The notes under the pieces: generated by a model
What the model was told of the DNA's origin: nothing
Databases searched by the model: none
What the model saw: the letters and a program-made list of their open reading frames with translations, nothing else
Virus record (IMG/VR): IMGVR_UViG_3300025030_000218
Span: 1-41,725 of that record
Source: a virus
Strand: one strand, 5' to 3'
DNA length: 41,725 bases
Position numbers and translations under genes: made by a program
Shown here: positions 355-41,057 of the stretch, piece after piece
Position numbering within the stretch: position 1 is the stretch's first letter
Layout of the letters: every line of letters begins with the position of its first letter

Positions 355-1605
355 TTATAACCAATATATTTTATTAAATCTCCAAATTAATTTACATGAT
401 TTAATTCCATATCTACGTAATATTCTCCCATTTAAGGTTGTAAAATTAATTGTTTTTCTTTGAGGTTGTAAACTAGTAATCCAACCTATATATATTTCTC
501 CAGATTTTTTAGTATATTTAATTAAATCTCTATGTTTAAACCCTAGTATTTCTTGATAAATTGCTTTACTCTGTCTCCTCATGGGTTTAATAGACCATTC
601 TTTAATATCACAAATATCAGGTTTTAATCCAGTTATAACAATAGCATCATTACTATGGCTCTTTTCAATATTCCAATCTATTCTTTTATTTGCAGTTTCA
701 CCTCCAGTAGTTAATTCTAATTTTGCAATTTTACTTAATTCCTGTCTCAAATAATTTTTACCTTGCATAACGTGTTGAGCATAATCAAACCTAATACTTT
801 TACCTTTAATTCTATTTTGGTATTTATTAATAAATTTTTCTTCATTATTTTTAGTTTTATCATGACATTTATCACATAAAGTAATAAGATTATTTATAGT
901 GTTAGAACCTTTTAAACGTCTAGGTACTATATGATGAGCTTCTAACTTACAATCTCTTTTACCACATTCTTGGCAAGTATAATTATCTCTCATTAATGTA
1001 GCAATTCTAAGGTTTTCATCTAATCTATTAGATTTCTGATATTGCCATTTATATAATTTATGACCTTCTTGTAATGCTCTTATATCTATTTGTACATCTT
1101 CAAGTATTATTTTGTCAATTTTACACCATTTATTTAATCTATTAACTACTCTCAATATTGCTTGTTTCTTTTGTTTAATAGTTGGTGCCAATTTACCTTT
1201 TCTTTTAGATGAATTACGATTATTAAATCTTACAGGTCTATATCTTTTATGTTTTCTACGATATTTTCTATAATTTCTTCTATTATCTATTAAATATTTA
1301 ACATCTTGTCTTTGTTTTATAGTACCTTTAAATATTATTTTATTTTTAGTTTTACATTTTTGTACTATAGCAATTCCTACATATTTTGAACCATCATCTA
1401 CTCCACAAATAAACTCAGATTCATTTTGATCATTAGTTTTAATTTCTTTTTTAAGTTTAATAATCATTGGATATTTAGAAATTAATATTGCTTTTTGTTT
1501 TCTAATAAAATACCAAGCATTATTAATAGGAGTAGGAGATAATTTTTTATTATTTTTATCTAATACAAAACAATATTCTTTTTGTTTTTGTAAAATTGTA
1601 GTCAT
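355..1605 (-). CDS. iscB: IscB-like RNA-guided RuvC/HNH nuclease
   Basis: A 416-residue protein in the domain order of IscB, the IS200/IS605-associated ancestor of Cas9. It has an N-terminal PLMP-type segment (FVLDKNNKKLSPT), RuvC-I with Asp70 (GVDDGSKYVGIA), and an arginine-rich bridge helix at residues 109-135. RuvC-II follows with Glu169 (IILED), then an HNH domain with CxxC pairs at 211/214 and 244/247 and the HHIVPRR core at 224-230. RuvC-III has HSNDA (Asp320), and the C-terminus carries the GFKHRDL...GEIYIGWI pattern of the target-recognition region. All catalytic positions are present. I chose the ATG at 1605 because the PLMP segment follows it and GAGAGG lies upstream; the frame is open to 1665, but that stretch belongs to the leader RNA. 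No TnpA is nearby, so it may be domesticated or act as a homing-type element. Confidence 0.85.
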   Translation of the reverse strand: MTTILQKQKEYCFVLDKNNKKLSPTPINNAWYFIRKQKAILISKYPMIIKLKKEIKTNDQNESEFICGVDDGSKYVGIAIVQKCKTKNKIIFKGTIKQRQDVKYLIDNRRNYRKYRRKHKRYRPVRFNNRNSSKRKGKLAPTIKQKKQAILRVVNRLNKWCKIDKIILEDVQIDIRALQEGHKLYKWQYQKSNRLDENLRIATLMRDNYTCQECGKRDCKLEAHHIVPRRLKGSNTINNLITLCDKCHDKTKNNEEKFINKYQNRIKGKSIRFDYAQHVMQGKNYLRQELSKIAKLELTTGGETANKRIDWNIEKSHSNDAIVITGLKPDICDIKEWSIKPMRRQSKAIYQEILGFKHRDLIKYTKKSGEIYIGWITSLQPQRKTINFTTLNGRILRRYGIKSCKLIWRFNKIYWL

Positions 1606-1835
1606 TTCTGACCAACCATCCTCTCGGAGAATTTTTCTTCTTGTCAATGACAATATAATGCACATGTATTTCGGTGTTTGACTTCAGGATAATAGAAGTC
1701 GGTCATCCTTTGTACTCACAGAGCAACAGACTGAAGATTACATCTATTGGTGTGTTTTTAGCATTTATATAATCGTAGTTCATCGCACAATTTAGTTTTC
1801 ACTATACGGCACTCACTTAGACTTGAATACTATAA
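1606..1835 (-). ncRNA. Probable omega-RNA (HEARO-type) of the IscB nuclease
   Basis: Immediately upstream of iscB is a 200-plus-base non-coding leader, less A/T-monotonous than other gaps in the window. On the minus strand it contains a hairpin GACTTC...GAAGTC near 1682-1702, a TTGTC-ATT-GACAA hairpin near 1643-1655, and CTCCGAGAG near 1619-1627. A segment GACCGAC (near 1697-1703) can pair with GTTGGTC just before the start codon, giving a long-range closing helix. Known omega-RNAs lie at this position, overlap the ribosome binding site and carry the guide at their 5' end. Here the guide would fall around 1815-1850. The exact 5' end and guide are inferred, not seen. Confidence 0.6.
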
Positions 1836-1898
1836 ATAATTCATAAATAATAGAATATCTATCCACTATTAATTATTATATAATTATTTATAATATAT

Positions 1899-2024
1899 TT
1901 AATATTCCATTGCATTTTCTAATACTAATTCTTTTGCTATTTTAATTGCTTCATCTTTATTTTTTGCTTCTACAGTTAAACTAGCACAAAATCCTACTGC
2001 CATTTCTACTACATAATTTTTCAT
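1899..2024 (-). CDS. Small protein, 41 residues, function unknown
   Basis: The ATG at 2024 follows AGAAAGGA and opens MKNYVVEMAVGFCASLTVEAK..., ending NAMEY. The pattern of a beta strand, then an AKNKDEAIKIAKEL helix, resembles small phage proteins with a strand-helix fold, but I do not recognise a family. It lies just upstream of the omega-RNA and so may contain or adjoin the sequence that the IscB guide matches. Confidence 0.6.
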   Translation of the reverse strand: MKNYVVEMAVGFCASLTVEAKNKDEAIKIAKELVLENAMEY

Positions 2025-4936: not shown

Positions 4937-5704
4937 TTAATAATTTGTAATAATCACATGAGAATTTTTCTTTTCACTTTTAGCATTACATTTATAATCT
5001 TTTCCGTAAGATTCTTTAATAAATTCATTAAAAGTATTTATTATGTATTTATTCTCTTTAACTACTAACATACATTTGCATTTAGATTCTTTCATAAAAT
5101 CATATATGTATTGATAAATATTTTCAAATTTCTGTGAAGGTGTATAAAGTGTATCACAATCTAAATATGGTGGATCGAAAAATATAAATGTTTTATTATT
5201 ATTTTTATATTGTTTTATTACTTCTTTATAATCTTTGTTTAGGATAATTGTATTTTGCAATAATGGAATAAATTCATCAGTTAAATTCTTGTAATTTTCA
5301 TTTTTATAACTACCATATCCAACATTAAAATGTCCTTTTAAATTGACTCTCCATACACCACTAAATGCAGTTTTATTTAAATAGTAAAATATTGCTGCTT
5401 GTTCAATATTATTTTTGTAAGATTTAGTATTCAATTGATTAATTATCTTACGATATTCTTCTATTGTATTTATATAAGGTTGCAATTCATTTTTTAATTC
5501 ATGATAATTATTTTTTAATACTAAATAAAAATTTATTAAATGTTCATTAATATCGTTTATTATTGCATTTTTAGGTTGAAGATGCCAATATAAAGCACCT
5601 CCACCTACAAATGGTTCAACATATGTATTAAATTGTGGGATATACTTTTCAAAATATTTTATTTCTTTGCGTTTTCCACCTATCCATTTAATAGGACTTT
5701 TTAT
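4937..5704 (-). CDS. D12-class DNA adenine methyltransferase (Dam-like), AUA start
   Basis: A 255-residue N6-adenine methyltransferase of the alpha (D12) group. The N-terminus reads IKSPIKWIGGKRKEI, the conserved SAM-site opening. EPFVGGGALYW (motif I, FxGxG type) follows, then INDINEHLINFY and the catalytic IFFDPPYLDC (motif IV). The first in-frame TTG (5485) lies after motif I, so it cannot be the start. The only start that fits is an ATA at 5704, seven bases after AAAGGAGG, with a TGA just upstream. It may modify phage DNA to escape host restriction, or act as an orphan methylase. No cognate nuclease is seen. Confidence 0.85.
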   Translation of the reverse strand: MKSPIKWIGGKRKEIKYFEKYIPQFNTYVEPFVGGGALYWHLQPKNAIINDINEHLINFYLVLKNNYHELKNELQPYINTIEEYRKIINQLNTKSYKNNIEQAAIFYYLNKTAFSGVWRVNLKGHFNVGYGSYKNENYKNLTDEFIPLLQNTIILNKDYKEVIKQYKNNNKTFIFFDPPYLDCDTLYTPSQKFENIYQYIYDFMKESKCKCMLVVKENKYIINTFNEFIKESYGKDYKCNAKSEKKNSHVIITNY

Positions 5705-9784: not shown

Positions 9785-10447
9785 TTATTCTCCTTTTCCA
9801 ATATATTTATTTATTTTATATGGAACATTTTTTTTATATTTAACATTTAATTCTTCTATATATTTTTTATTATCTTCAAATACATTATTATCTAAAAATG
9901 GATATTTAACAGACCTTATTTGATTTAATCCTTTATCAAATTGTACAGTGTATTGTAAGGATAGTAACATATTTTTAATAATTTTTCTAGATATATTTAC
10001 ACCGAGAGTTTTGAATATAATATCTTTATCAATATCATGTTTTAAATATTGATAAGGTAATTTCATATCTGTATGTATTCCATCTACTATATTACATTGT
10101 AATATTTTTTGTATTTTCAATGGGAAAGTACCATTGGTATATATAATTAATGGCGAATTTATTATATTTTTTATCTGTTTTATATCAAATAATATTTCTT
10201 CTATATCGTTGATTAAATACTCTCCACCACTTATAACTATATATTCATAAAGATAAGCATTTAATTTCAATAATTCAATAACTTGATTAATATTGTAATA
10301 ATTTTTATGTTTCTTAATTATTAATTCTTCATAATTAATGCAGTTATAACATTTTAAGTTACAACCACACAAACTATGAATTATCAATGTTGGTGAATTA
10401 TTTATTTCTGATATTGATGTAGTAAATTTATCATAGTATTTTATCAT
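9785..10447 (-). CDS. nrdG: Anaerobic ribonucleotide reductase activating protein (radical SAM)
   Basis: Radical-SAM activase that makes the glycyl radical on NrdD. The CNLKCYNC triad (CxxxCxxC, residues about 29-36) binds the 4Fe-4S cluster. IVISGGEYL corresponds to the GGE SAM-binding motif, and PLIIYTNG is typical of the activase. At 220 residues it is longer than the minimal 150-160. The ATG follows the nrdD stop directly, so translation is coupled. Confidence 0.88.
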   Translation of the reverse strand: MIKYYDKFTTSISEINNSPTLIIHSLCGCNLKCYNCINYEELIIKKHKNYYNINQVIELLKLNAYLYEYIVISGGEYLINDIEEILFDIKQIKNIINSPLIIYTNGTFPLKIQKILQCNIVDGIHTDMKLPYQYLKHDIDKDIIFKTLGVNISRKIIKNMLLSLQYTVQFDKGLNQIRSVKYPFLDNNVFEDNKKYIEELNVKYKKNVPYKINKYIGKGE

Positions 10448-12376
10448 CTATAAATCTGACTCAGTGAATTTTTTTCTTATATTCCAATCATATCTTCTTG
10501 CTTTACTCCAAAAATTATACTTACCTTCATATATATTAGATTTATTTAATTTTATATTTTTTCTAGAAATCATTTTTACATATCCAATAACTCTTGAAAA
10601 TGTTGCTATATCATCACTACCGCATATATCACATATTTCAATATTTTTACCATCAGTAGCTACAAACTTTTGACCACAATTCATACAACTAGTTAATGTT
10701 GGTGTAAATGTAATATAATTGATTGGTTTATTAAATAATTTATCTAAATATTTTGCTAATTTAATAGGTTCAATTTTTGATTCAATAAAATGGTGTAAGA
10801 TTGAACCACTTGTTGCGTAACCTTGATATTCTGCTGCATTTTCTATTTGTTGAGTAAAATCCTCTTCACTAAATGGTAACATACATCCAGATGTTAGATA
10901 TACATCTTTACCAACACCTTGAACAAATATTTTTTTATTATTTTCTTTTGCCCATTTTAAATCATTTCTAGCTAATTTAATTCCCGCATTTTCTGCAGGT
11001 GCGTATTCGATCCCACAAGCTACTTGATCACGAATAATAAATTCATTTATAATTTCTGTAATATATTGCATTATTTCATGAGCAAATAATTTACCTTCTT
11101 TATTTTTAAGTCCGTTTTCATACCTTATATTAATTAATGCTTCGTGCATACCAGTTACAGCAAATACATTAAAATAATTTTTTAAATCTTTATTAAATGA
11201 AAAAAATGTAGGATATAATTCTTTATTTTGCTCAATAAAATTTCTTTTAGCCATATGACCTTCTTGCATTATTTCAAAATATTCACGTATTTTTAATTTT
11301 AATAATTCTTTATTATGACCAAATTCAATAAATACTCTATTTAAATTTAAATTAAGAACTTGAATAGCACCTGTGTTACCTATAGAAGAACCAAATATTC
11401 CTCCTCCTAATTTTGACAATAAAGAAATGTCTAGGCATAATCTACAGCATAAACTTCTTGATACTTCTGGATCTTTAGATTTAATATTAGGATTCAATTT
11501 CCTATAATACTCATCTTCAAAAGGTTTGGTTTTGAAATTTTCAAAATAAACTCCACCCCATGAATACATTTTATCTAATAAATACAAAAATAATTCATTT
11601 TCATAGTTAAAATTGTCATCAATTTGTACAGTAATTAATGGGAATGTAAATGGAATTCCTGTTCTTGTTCCTTCTGCCATTACATCAATAATAGCTTTAT
11701 TAATTCTGTCAAAATATTGCGATGGAATTTCTGAATATGTAAAATCACTAACATCTCCACTAATCACTACTAATTCATCTTTTATTTCTTCTGAAGGTTT
11801 ACCGAATTCCATTGTTAAATTTGAAAAAGCACTTTCACTACCAGAACGTAATGGTAAGTTTAATTCATAAATTAAAGATTTAAACATTCTTCTAAGTTGT
11901 TTATCTGAATATTTAATACCATTCATTTCTTCATTGTATAAATAAGAAGCAGAAATTGTTGTCATTTGAGATAGCATTACTGCACCAGATACTTGCTGTG
12001 ACATTAAAACAACTACATTACTAAAGTGCCTTAATAATACTTCTAAACTAGAACAAGGTTCTGATTCTAACATATTTTTTGCACGACTTGGTATTCCTAA
12101 TGTAGCAATATCTTTACAAGAAACTGACTGACAATATGAACTTAATTGTTTATCATGTATGTATATAACTCCATCTTTATATAAACCAACAAGTTTTTTA
12201 GGGAATATTTTCGTCATTAAATATTCTTCTTCTGACATATTACAAATATTTTTTCTTAATAATGGTAGTGAATATACAAAATTACTATTTTCTCTTTTTA
12301 AATAATCTGACTTGATATCATCATCATTGGTGATAAATTTATTAATTAAATCATTTGTATTTTTAAACATCGTCAT
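10448..12376 (-). CDS. nrdD: Anaerobic ribonucleoside-triphosphate reductase
   Basis: The class III enzyme reduces NTPs to dNTPs without oxygen, using a glycyl radical made by NrdG. The 642-residue chain shows RSLCCRLCLDIS, GGIFGSSIGNTGAIQVLNLNLNR, EYAPAENAG and VYLTSGCMLPFSE. The C-terminal zinc site is SCMNCGQKF...CDICGSDD, and SRVIGYV carries the radical glycine. I choose the ATG at 12376 after AAAGGAGAT rather than 12400, which lies inside the preceding gene. Its presence implies an anaerobic host. Confidence 0.92.
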   Translation of the reverse strand: MTMFKNTNDLINKFITNDDDIKSDYLKRENSNFVYSLPLLRKNICNMSEEEYLMTKIFPKKLVGLYKDGVIYIHDKQLSSYCQSVSCKDIATLGIPSRAKNMLESEPCSSLEVLLRHFSNVVVLMSQQVSGAVMLSQMTTISASYLYNEEMNGIKYSDKQLRRMFKSLIYELNLPLRSGSESAFSNLTMEFGKPSEEIKDELVVISGDVSDFTYSEIPSQYFDRINKAIIDVMAEGTRTGIPFTFPLITVQIDDNFNYENELFLYLLDKMYSWGGVYFENFKTKPFEDEYYRKLNPNIKSKDPEVSRSLCCRLCLDISLLSKLGGGIFGSSIGNTGAIQVLNLNLNRVFIEFGHNKELLKLKIREYFEIMQEGHMAKRNFIEQNKELYPTFFSFNKDLKNYFNVFAVTGMHEALINIRYENGLKNKEGKLFAHEIMQYITEIINEFIIRDQVACGIEYAPAENAGIKLARNDLKWAKENNKKIFVQGVGKDVYLTSGCMLPFSEEDFTQQIENAAEYQGYATSGSILHHFIESKIEPIKLAKYLDKLFNKPINYITFTPTLTSCMNCGQKFVATDGKNIEICDICGSDDIATFSRVIGYVKMISRKNIKLNKSNIYEGKYNFWSKARRYDWNIRKKFTESDL

Positions 12377-12381
12377 ATATA

Positions 12382-12582
12382 TTATATCTCCTTTACCCAT
12401 TTAATTGCTTCATTAAAATTCATAACTTCTCCATCTACTTCTAGCATGGGGACACTCAAAAATTTCTTCTCCATCATAATATCAATATCATTACATTCTT
12501 CATAAACCACTTGTTTTTCATCTAATTTCATTTTTAAAATTTTACATTTAGCACACCCATTAGAATATAACGTAATCGTGAT
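12382..12582 (-). CDS. Glutaredoxin/NrdH-like thiol protein with non-standard start
   Basis: About 66 residues: TITLYSNGCAKCKILKMKLDE, with a CAKC redox site after the first strand. SVPMLEVDGEVMNF follows, with the cis-proline of the thioredoxin fold, then a final helix. It probably supplies electrons, or keeps thiols reduced, for the reductase encoded next. AAAGGAGGG precedes the frame, but no ATG, GTG or TTG lies before the active site. The candidates are ATC at 12582 or ATT at 12576. Its stop overlaps the nrdD ribosome binding region. Confidence 0.72.
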   Translation of the reverse strand: MTITLYSNGCAKCKILKMKLDEKQVVYEECNDIDIMMEKKFLSVPMLEVDGEVMNFNEAIKWVKEI

Positions 12583-34561: not shown

Positions 34562-35791
34562 CTACCTCAATTCAATTAAATATTTTATAGTACATTGTTC
34601 TTCTTTATATACTATTATTTCATCATTCTTTAATGTTGAATAACCAATATTTGCACCTGCATGTGCATGTAAACAATTACTACCAGGACACATTATTTGT
34701 AAGTTTTCATAGTTTAAATTATGATATTTACTATCAAATGTATAAACATCATAAGGTTTACCATAAGCAACATTAAATAATGCCATAAATCCTGAATTAC
34801 TATTACCTTTAACCCAATAACTTCCATTTAAAGATGTATATCCTAAACTTTTTCTAGCTTTTGGAGCAAAGTAAATACCATTCCCATATAATTTACCTGT
34901 GATTACTGCTGGAGGTCTAAGTGCTAGACCCATATTAATAATTGACCAGAAATTCTCTGATTTACTGCCATGCCATAATAACTTCATATTATTTATATTA
35001 TTGCTCTGTGTAAATTCATCAAATTTCTTTTGTGTCTTAATGTTAATTACTTTCCATGCTTGATAAAACTTATCACTAATACCACCAAGATTTTTCTTGA
35101 TTAATTCTTTTTCTTCCTGATTAATTTCTTCAAATTGCAATCCTAAGACTTCTAATATTGTTTGATTTGGCATTTCATATGTATCATTTTCATTATTTTC
35201 ATCTTTGACTATTGAATGCTGTACCACCTGCCCTTTCATTACATCAAGTAAATCTTGCTCTCTTTGAATAATCTCACTAAAATCTTTATCATCTTTTGCT
35301 AAGTAATCTTTAACTTTTCCCATTTTTCTAGGAATAGTTTTAAATAAATCAACTAATATCTTATTAAATAATTCAATATCATCTGTATCAATTAAATTAT
35401 TTAAAATTAATTGTGCTTCGTCAATCATTTGTTGTGTAACTTTATTAGAAGATATTGTATAATTATCTTTAATTGCTTGTCATGCCATTGATTGTAATCT
35501 TATTACAATTTGTGCGATTGAAGGAATAATAATATCAAGGTATTCTTTCTTTTTATTTTGAGGGATAATAGTTTCTGCAACTAATCTACTATTGTCCACA
35601 TAACCCTTTTTTATTTTACTTTTATACTGAGATTCCCATTTAAATATAGGATAAGTTTTTGTTTGATATCCTGAATTACCTATCCTACCATATTTACATA
35701 TAAAGTAACCATCTCCTTTATCCAACATCTGGTAATATTTATTATTATTCTCTCCTGGTTCTACTTTAACTAAATACAATGGATTTTGCAT
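34562..35791 (-). CDS. WGR-PARP ADP-ribosyltransferase, frame interrupted by one in-frame UGA
   Basis: From the ATG at 35791 the first 103 codons encode a WGR domain (YYQMLDKGDGYFICKYGRIG...KTYPIFKWESQYKSK). A TGA at 35480-35482 then interrupts the frame, which continues without shift (QAIKDNYTISSNK) into a helical PARP regulatory part and the catalytic domain. Its features are LLWHGSKSENFW, YGNGIYFAPKARKSLGYTS, ALFNVAYGKPYDV and NDEIIVYKEEQ. His, Tyr and Glu of the H-Y-E triad are kept (H153, Y197 and E270 counted from the ATG at 35428). PARPs use NAD+ to add ADP-ribose; WGR binds DNA breaks. Two polypeptides, readthrough, or a nonsense mutation are all possible. Confidence 0.82.
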
Positions 35792-39784: not shown

Positions 39785-41057
39785 TTATATTACACTTTTA
39801 ATCCTATTTTTTGCAATTTCACAATAAGGTTCTTTGTCTGTATTTAATAACTCAATATTAATCCATTTTAAATTATATCCTTCATCTTTGTTTAATTCCT
39901 CACAACTTAATCCGTGTGTTCCACTTCCAGCGGTTACATCAATTGTTTTACCATCAATAGGAGTAACTAATTTTATCAACCATTTAATTAATTGTTTAGG
40001 TTTAACTGTGACATGAGTATTACCTTCGCCTTTTTCTTTCTTGGTTGCTTTTCCACAATAATAAAATGGTACAAAGTCATCTGTATTAATCTTTAAGAAA
40101 TACCTACTTGCTCCACCTTCACTTGCAGGTATATCTTTTTCTTGTGCTTTTCTACCACCATTGCGTTCATGATTAATATTCCCACTTTTCCAATCTGTAC
40201 CTGCTGGTTGACCTTTTTTAATTTCTCCACTTTGACTATCTAATATTTCTCCCATAGAAGAATCAAGAATAATATTAGCAGGGAATCTTCCTATCTCATT
40301 TGCTGGCATTGACTTATCTTCTGCATACGCACCATATATTTTATTTTCATTATCTGAATAATTAGTTGTTGGATTTTTAGATGCTTTTGCATTGATAATA
40401 TCTTTATCATCTTGTGAAGTAGGTATTCTACAAGCATCAATATTCATTGCACCACAATTATGTATACTTATATTATTAATATATGTACCTTCTAATGGTT
40501 TTTGAAAAATTGTAATAGATTCATGTGCTGGCTTTAAACCTGATGTCTTCCATCCATTCCATTGCTTTGCTTGTTCTGTTGAAGGTTCAGTAATATTATA
40601 CCCATCACATTTATAATTATCTCCAACAAAATTATTATCACCACTTCTAATACCCTTGCTATCATTTTTCCCAACAATTTTTCTTTCTTTATCTTTACCT
40701 GCTTTCTTATCAAACAATTTTCCTATATCTTGGTTTTTAGGAAATCCTGTACCATATAAATATTCAATTTCTTCTACTATTTGAAATCCAACATCTTCAA
40801 AGGCACATTTCATCCTAAGGATGTCCAAATATACAAACATAACCTCCTGGTTTAATTATTCTATATAAACCAATTGCTCTTTTATTACACCATTTATAAA
40901 AATCTCCTGTATTATCCCATTTCTTACCCATAAATTTTAAATCATAAGGAAAATCAGAAATACAACTATCATATGTATTATCTTTAATTTTCTCCATTAC
41001 TTCAATATTATCACCTTGAACAAGTTTACCATTGTCTGTTTTATAAATTAATTCCAA
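39785..41057 (-). pseudogene. Beta-class DNA methyltransferase broken by a frameshift
   Basis: TTG at 41057 (after GGGAG) opens MELIYKTDNGKLVQGDNIEVM. It continues through the catalytic SDFPYDLKFMGKKWD to KPGGYVCIFGHP and a stop at 40815. The next frame resumes RMKCAFEDVGFQIVEEIEYLYGTGFPKNQDIGK and runs to HVTVKPKQLIKWLI and IDVTAGSGTHG (SAM motif I), ending at 39785. FGHP...RMKCAFED is normally joined by a few residues, so a deletion near 40814-40824 of length not divisible by three broke the gene. Two separate chains could still assemble, but loss of function or an assembly error is more likely. Confidence 0.7.

What the first reader, a model, noticed from the sequence alone, without database searches (positions are those of the whole stretch)
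355..1835. Phage-borne IscB with a foldable omega-RNA leader and no transposase
The protein keeps all RuvC and HNH catalytic positions, and the leader contains hairpins and a 7-bp long-range pairing (GACCGAC with GTTGGTC) ending at the start codon. No TnpA or transposon ends are evident. A phage could use this as a homing nuclease, against competing phages, or against plasmids. The guide, expected near 1815-1850, would reveal the target.
Basis: partly seen in the sequence, partly recalled or inferred. Interest (0 to 1): 0.85.

Follow-up and report, generated by a model that had tools for sequence, protein, structure and literature searches.

The report
Phage IscB with guide-carrying omega RNA
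This phage carries an intact IscB, a small RNA-guided DNA-cutting enzyme related to Cas9, with its guide RNA directly upstream; comparison with sister phages that lack the insertion suggests that such elements copy their guide from wherever they sit, which would let them cut relatives lacking the insert and so spread.

Summary
The minus-strand ORF (355-1605; 416 aa from ATG 1605) is a full IscB with every RuvC and HNH catalytic position. It matches NCBIfam guided_IscB (294.6 bits) and HfmIscB of PDB 9k2z (543 bits). The leader is an omega-RNA: a covariance model built from 45 relatives without the window finds 1709-1825 at 115 bits, E 4.5e-26. Rfam HEARO itself scores only 24.8 bits (cut-off 83). 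No Y1 transposase is in the record.

The 7-bp pairing conflicts with two covarying hairpins. The 1815-1850 stretch is guide-adaptor hairpin and nexus, not guide. The guide lies upstream, most likely 1912-1897 (alternative 1924-1909).

Six occupied/empty pairs of Staphylococcus phages show insertion exactly at the guide/scaffold boundary; all six empty sites read A|GG, mostly in a Shine-Dalgarno. Elements up to 97.6% identical at different sites share almost no guide. One phage group carries a duplicated, synonymously recoded target.

Best reading: a TnpA-less, self-retargeting RNA-guided homing or maintenance element. Cleavage is inferred, not shown. Phage IscB itself is already known.

The parts
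355..1605 (-). iscB coding sequence, 416 aa plus stop; start ATG 1605-1603
   Evidence: NCBIfam guided_IscB 294.6 bits; PDB 9k2z HfmIscB 543 bits; catalytic residues invariant
1600..1613 (-). 3' terminal hairpin GGUCA-GAAA-UGACU; the start codon lies in it
   Evidence: 92.8% of cells paired, covariation 0.427 against 0.170 shuffled, 0 of 500 shuffles as high
1709..1825 (-). conserved omega-RNA core (nexus, central stem, pseudoknot region)
   Evidence: model R1 built without the window: 115 bits, E 4.5e-26; Rfam HEARO subthreshold 24.8 bits over 1629-1830
1826..1896 (-). guide-adaptor hairpin P1 with GUGGAUA apical loop; preferred 5' end of the scaffold at 1896
   Evidence: MFE stem ATATTATAAATAATT/AATTATTTATAGTAT; P1 arms of relatives pair with their own partner better than in all 10,000 permutations
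1897..1912 (-). preferred guide, CAATGGAATATTAAAT (about 65%)
   Evidence: directly 5' of P1 as in OgeuIscB (PMC9640706); homologues L083 and L084 have a native GG exactly at this junction
1909..1924 (-). alternative guide, TATTAGAAAATGCAAT, if the scaffold starts at GG 1908-1907 (about 35%)
   Evidence: GGAATATTAAATA resembles the scaffold start of L007 and L066; joined flanks give an ATGA gene overlap
1899..2024 (-). small upstream gene, 41 aa, cut short at the insertion; homologues continue EYYNGNLEIE / EYYDGNLEIE
   Evidence: L083 and L084
336..352 (-). right junction: AAGGAG Shine-Dalgarno (GG at 350-349) and ATG 338-336 of the next gene, directly after the iscB stop
   Evidence: sequence; the same arrangement in most relatives

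Best explanation
The locus is a TnpA-less OMEGA element: a guide taken from the left flank, an omega-RNA scaffold starting with the guide-adaptor hairpin, and iscB translated from the same leader. When the element sits at a new site, the 16 or so bases to its left automatically become its guide. IscB loaded with this RNA is expected to cut the element-free allele of that site, where the guide sequence is followed directly by GG (usually in the Shine-Dalgarno of the next gene). The occupied allele is spared because the element separates guide sequence and GG. Repair of the cut allele from the occupied one during co-infection or replication would spread or maintain the element, as homing endonucleases do. 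Shown: protein, RNA, scaffold boundary in relatives, insertion sites in relatives, guide turnover. Inferred: cleavage, GG as part of the target-adjacent motif, homing, and that the window copy behaves like its relatives. New-site jumps are not explained by homing and may need a TnpA in trans.
For: Intact IscB with all catalytic residues and a solved close relative. Omega-RNA found by an independent model with covariation. Six occupied/empty pairs with the junction at the guide/scaffold boundary and A|GG in the empty allele. Nearly identical elements at different sites with unrelated guides, e.g. L063/L069 97.6% identical, 2 of 16 guide positions shared. Synonymously recoded second target copy in Silviaviruses. 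Related behaviour, a nuclease-driven spread into element-free plasmids, is reported for TnpB (PMC11870625).
Against: No cleavage data. The window has no known empty allele, its P1 lacks the usual GG, and its right flank is rearranged. Near-identical elements at unrelated sites need an insertion mechanism that homing does not give. The recoded target could be a co-inherited diverged copy. Insertion at gene borders could partly reflect selection on where inserts are tolerated.
Confidence: 0.68

Rival explanations
1. Non-autonomous IS200/IS605-type transposon: the ends are moved in trans by a TnpA elsewhere, and IscB only re-cuts the donor site after excision so that the copy is restored. Spread between phages is a by-product.
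For: Precise insertion without a consistent target duplication; right-end hairpins in L007, L046, L053 and L054; near-identical elements at unrelated sites.
Against: No Y1 transposase in the window or in 25 of 27 carrying records; the window, L010 and L011 have no right-end sequence after iscB, so they should not be excisable.
Confidence: 0.2
2. Domesticated weapon: the phage keeps IscB to cut competing phages, plasmids or the host, with a guide under selection for that target.
For: Phage carriage and an intact nuclease; a guide against the empty allele would also harm close relatives in mixed infection.
Against: Guides are the local flank in six of six tested sites and change with the site. 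Exact 18-base matches of the alternative window guide plus GG in other viral contigs lie in unrelated contexts.
Confidence: 0.05
3. The window copy is a decaying relic that no longer works, whatever the family does.
For: AU-rich P1 without the usual GG start, no right-end sequence after the stop codon, rearranged right flank; clear relics exist in other phages (L017, L018).
Against: Full-length ORF with all catalytic residues, a compensatory GUC/GAC change in the nexus stem and an intact start-codon hairpin.
Confidence: 0.15

Closest known systems
HfmIscB with omega-RNA (PDB 9k2z)
   Same: Full-length protein match, 543 bits, E 3.5e-162; best structural match of the predicted model
   Different: Studied as a purified complex; its native insertion site and target motif could not be looked up here
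OgeuIscB and its omega-RNA (PDB 7xht, 7utn; PMC9640706)
   Same: Domain order, guide directly 5' of a guide-adaptor hairpin, nexus and central stem
   Different: Only distantly alike in sequence (76 bits); structure solved with a GAAG target-adjacent motif, whereas insertion sites here point to GG
HEARO systems in viral genomes (PMC9755519)
   Same: IscB with HEARO RNA, often viral, rarely with TnpA, active RNA-guided nucleases
   Different: No insertion-site or empty-allele analysis was found in that paper's main text; the RNA here falls below the Rfam HEARO cut-off
TnpB of IS200/IS605 as a plasmid gene drive (PMC11870625)
   Same: A guide that records the insertion site and targets the element-free copy
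   Different: TnpB rather than IscB, transposon with TnpA, plasmids rather than phages; shown by experiment there, only inferred here
Phage homing endonucleases
   Same: Insert between genes, absent from sister phages at the same site, expected to cut the empty allele
   Different: Protein-encoded fixed specificity, whereas here the specificity is rewritten by the flank

Membership tests
IscB (OMEGA RNA-guided nuclease) | Curated IscB model passed over the full RuvC/HNH region | tested here: met
   NF040563 294.6 bits, cut-off 175, residues 32-344 of the long ORF
IscB (OMEGA RNA-guided nuclease) | Split RuvC with inserted HNH, catalytic residues present | tested here: met
   D70/D71, E169, H224/H225/H248, H317, D320 invariant
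IscB (OMEGA RNA-guided nuclease) | Omega-RNA upstream of iscB with conserved structure | tested here: met
   Model R1 115 bits in the window; covariation
IscB (OMEGA RNA-guided nuclease) | Guide at the 5' end of the RNA, from the flank | tested here: inconclusive
   Met in relatives; for the window two possible starts, 1896 or 1908
IscB (OMEGA RNA-guided nuclease) | RNA-guided DNA cleavage | not testable with these tools
   Needs an in vitro assay
Rfam HEARO (RF02033) | Score at or above the gathering cut-off | tested here: not met
   24.8 bits against 83 in the window; no hit at gathering in 14 relatives, although depositors annotate HEARO in Silviavirus records
IS200/IS605 transposon | Y1 transposase TnpA in the element | tested here: not met
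   PF01797 absent from the window and from 25 of 27 carrying records
IS200/IS605 transposon | Two recognisable ends | tested here: inconclusive
   Left end P1; right-end hairpins only in part of the family and not in the window
Homing element | Empty alleles at the same site in close relatives | tested here: met
   Six sites in related phages; none found for the window itself
Homing element | Recognition sequence interrupted by the insertion | tested here: met
   In relatives guide sequence and GG are adjacent in the empty allele and separated in the occupied one
Homing element | Biased inheritance in mixed infection, dependent on the nuclease | not testable with these tools
   Needs co-infection experiments

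The most novel reading that the evidence does not exclude
In phages, IscB/omega-RNA has become a stand-alone homing element whose target motif overlaps the Shine-Dalgarno sequence. It then lands harmlessly between genes, rewrites its own specificity at each new site, rebuilds the ribosome-binding site with its right end, and in at least one group protects its host copy with a synonymously recoded target.
Probability: 0.4. Interest if true: 0.75.

Novelty: new member of a known kind. Interest (0 to 1): 0.52.

Why it matters
IscB is the likely ancestor of Cas9, and what it does in nature is only partly known. The Staphylococcus phage pairs give ready-made carrier and empty alleles with predicted guides and a predicted adjacent motif, so RNA-guided homing in phages can be tested directly. 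The family's RNA also escapes the public HEARO model at its cut-off, so such elements are probably under-annotated in phage genomes.

Tried and rejected
Guide at 1815-1850: rejected, this is the P1 3' arm and nexus. 7-bp pairing: rejected, not conserved and competing with covarying helices. My own first reading, that the conserved sequence just 5' of CAAGCC was a fixed guide, was dropped once P1 pairing was seen. Scaffold start at GG 1908-1907 was first preferred because joined flanks then give an ATGA gene overlap; it was demoted after homologues L083/L084 and the P1 fold pointed to 1896. Searches for the window's empty allele gave nothing usable. A single-sequence structure prediction was useless (pLDDT 34); an 18-sequence one reached 75.7 and matched IscBs. 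No paper on HfmIscB or on phage IscB homing was found in the library.

Full report
What is there. The minus-strand ORF at 355-1665 encodes IscB. The family alignment puts the start at ATG 1605-1603, giving 416 aa. It matches NCBIfam guided_IscB at 294.6 bits, Pfam RRXRR and HNH, and HfmIscB of PDB 9k2z at 543 bits. All catalytic positions are present and invariant in eleven phage proteins. A structure predicted with 18 sequences (pLDDT 75.7) has IscB and IsrB structures as its best matches. The record is a 41.7-kb virus contig that may be a fragment, with phage replication genes.

The RNA. Rfam HEARO reaches only 24.8 bits against a gathering score of 83, and none of 14 relatives tested passes either. 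A covariance model built from 45 relatives, window excluded, finds 1709-1825 at 115 bits, E 4.5e-26; the next hit in the window has E 3.1. In a 36-sequence alignment, window included, 16 of 23 predicted pairs show double changes. In the nexus stem the window's GUC/GAC replaces the usual GCC/GGC. The AUG lies in a GNRA-capped hairpin that covaries (score 0.427 against 0.170 shuffled). For IsrB the terminal hairpin is known to hold the Shine-Dalgarno (PMC9581776), so competition between translation and RNA folding is plausible; that is inference.

Where the guide is. In OgeuIscB the guide is followed directly by the guide-adaptor hairpin starting at G1 (PMC9640706). In the relatives this hairpin (P1) starts with GG in 49 of 52 loci, a count that includes the alternative start of the window; the starts were chosen with P1 pairing and GG in view, so the count is descriptive. 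Cognate P1 arms pair better in sum than in all 10,000 permutations. Upstream of that point pairwise identity is about 0.3, apart from a preferred A at -1. The stretch 1815-1850 is therefore scaffold.

Natural experiment. Six insertions in Staphylococcus phages have sequenced empty relatives: JDF86 vs phiSA_BS1, Golestan vs PSU4, the Silviaviruses vs Romulus and LSA2308, RSM-J51Sa vs phiSA_BS2, 184DA vs EW3 and phage K, and L035 vs Twort. In each case left-flank homology ends at the guide/scaffold boundary, within two or three bases where GG or A runs are shared, and the empty allele continues with GG: GGAGAA, GGGGAT, GGTGAT, GGAGGA, GGATGA, GGAGAC. The occupied scaffolds start GGACTT in four cases, GTC in the Silviaviruses and GAAC in 184DA. 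AGG occurs at about 1.6% of positions, so six of six is far from chance for random sites. Selection for gene boundaries weakens this figure, but the Silviavirus site lies inside a gene and still reads A|GG. The left flank, hence the guide, equals the empty target over 16 bases in five cases and with a one-base offset in L010. RSM-J51Sa and 184DA carry deleted copies.

Guide turnover and escape. L063 and L069 are 97.6% identical over 1,553 bases but share 2 of 16 guide positions; L004/L067, L008/L009 and L030/L056 behave alike. The Silviavirus insertion covers the start of a RusA-like resolvase gene. The occupied allele carries a second copy of that start with AATAGTAAA changed to AATTCGAAG (L010) or AATTCGAAA (L011), encoding the same residues after a new start, beside an intact GGTGAT. 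This is what escape from self-cutting would look like; co-inheritance of a diverged copy cannot be excluded.

The window copy. Its strongest P1 starts at 1896. Two homologues of the small upstream gene (L083, L084) run on past this point and have a native GG exactly there if one base is allowed to be missing in the window. The preferred guide is therefore 1912-1897. An alternative start at GG 1908-1907 resembles L007 and L066 and gives a neat gene overlap when flanks are joined. I weigh these about 65:35, by judgement. The right flank is the Shine-Dalgarno of another gene, so under the preferred reading the site is rearranged, and no empty allele was found.

Mobility. Y1 transposase is absent from the window and from 25 of 27 carrying records (several are fragments), in line with the sparse TnpA association reported for HEARO systems (PMC9755519). 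The protein tree mixes viral and chromosomal loci (at least 8 label changes forced by supported branches); some chromosomal loci may be prophages, which was not checked. Homing explains spread into empty alleles but not jumps to new sites. Right-end hairpins in L007, L046, L053 and L054 hint at a TnpA acting in trans.

Verdict. Membership in IscB/OMEGA is secure; phage carriage is known (over 16% of HEARO fragments viral or prophage-derived, PMC9755519). What is added is site-resolved evidence that phage IscB elements take their guide from the flank, insert at A|GG, and are arranged as homing or maintenance elements would be. Cleavage remains untested.

Noticed in passing
window 34562-35428 (-): Protein with a PARP catalytic domain (PF00644, E 7.8e-24), a likely ADP-ribosyltransferase in the phage.
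   Followed up: no
window 338 to about 90 (-): The gene downstream of iscB is frameshifted at a run of A relative to its homologues in L019 and L020; sequencing error or a real frameshift.
   Followed up: no
window 4937-5485 and 39785-40840 (-): A D12-class adenine methyltransferase and a second DNA methyltransferase.
   Followed up: no
window 9785-12400 (-): Anaerobic ribonucleotide reductase large subunit next to a radical SAM protein, probably its activase.
   Followed up: no
L008 6709-7818: Golestan phage carries a TnpB-like protein (OrfB_IS605, Cas12f1-like TNB) about 1.4 kb downstream of its IscB, with no Y1 transposase in the record.
   Followed up: no
L017 722-1430; L018 about 1060-1170: Internally deleted copies of the IscB element that keep both junctions, in RSM-J51Sa and 184DA.
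   Followed up: partly
L009 8610-8842: Group I intron about 3.4 kb downstream of the JDF86 IscB.
   Followed up: no
L003-L006, L027, L030, L051, L056, L062, right ends: Conserved right-end sequence like ACACATTTGTCTATATTTAAACAC, partly complementary to the GUGGACA loop of P1; meaning unknown.
   Followed up: no
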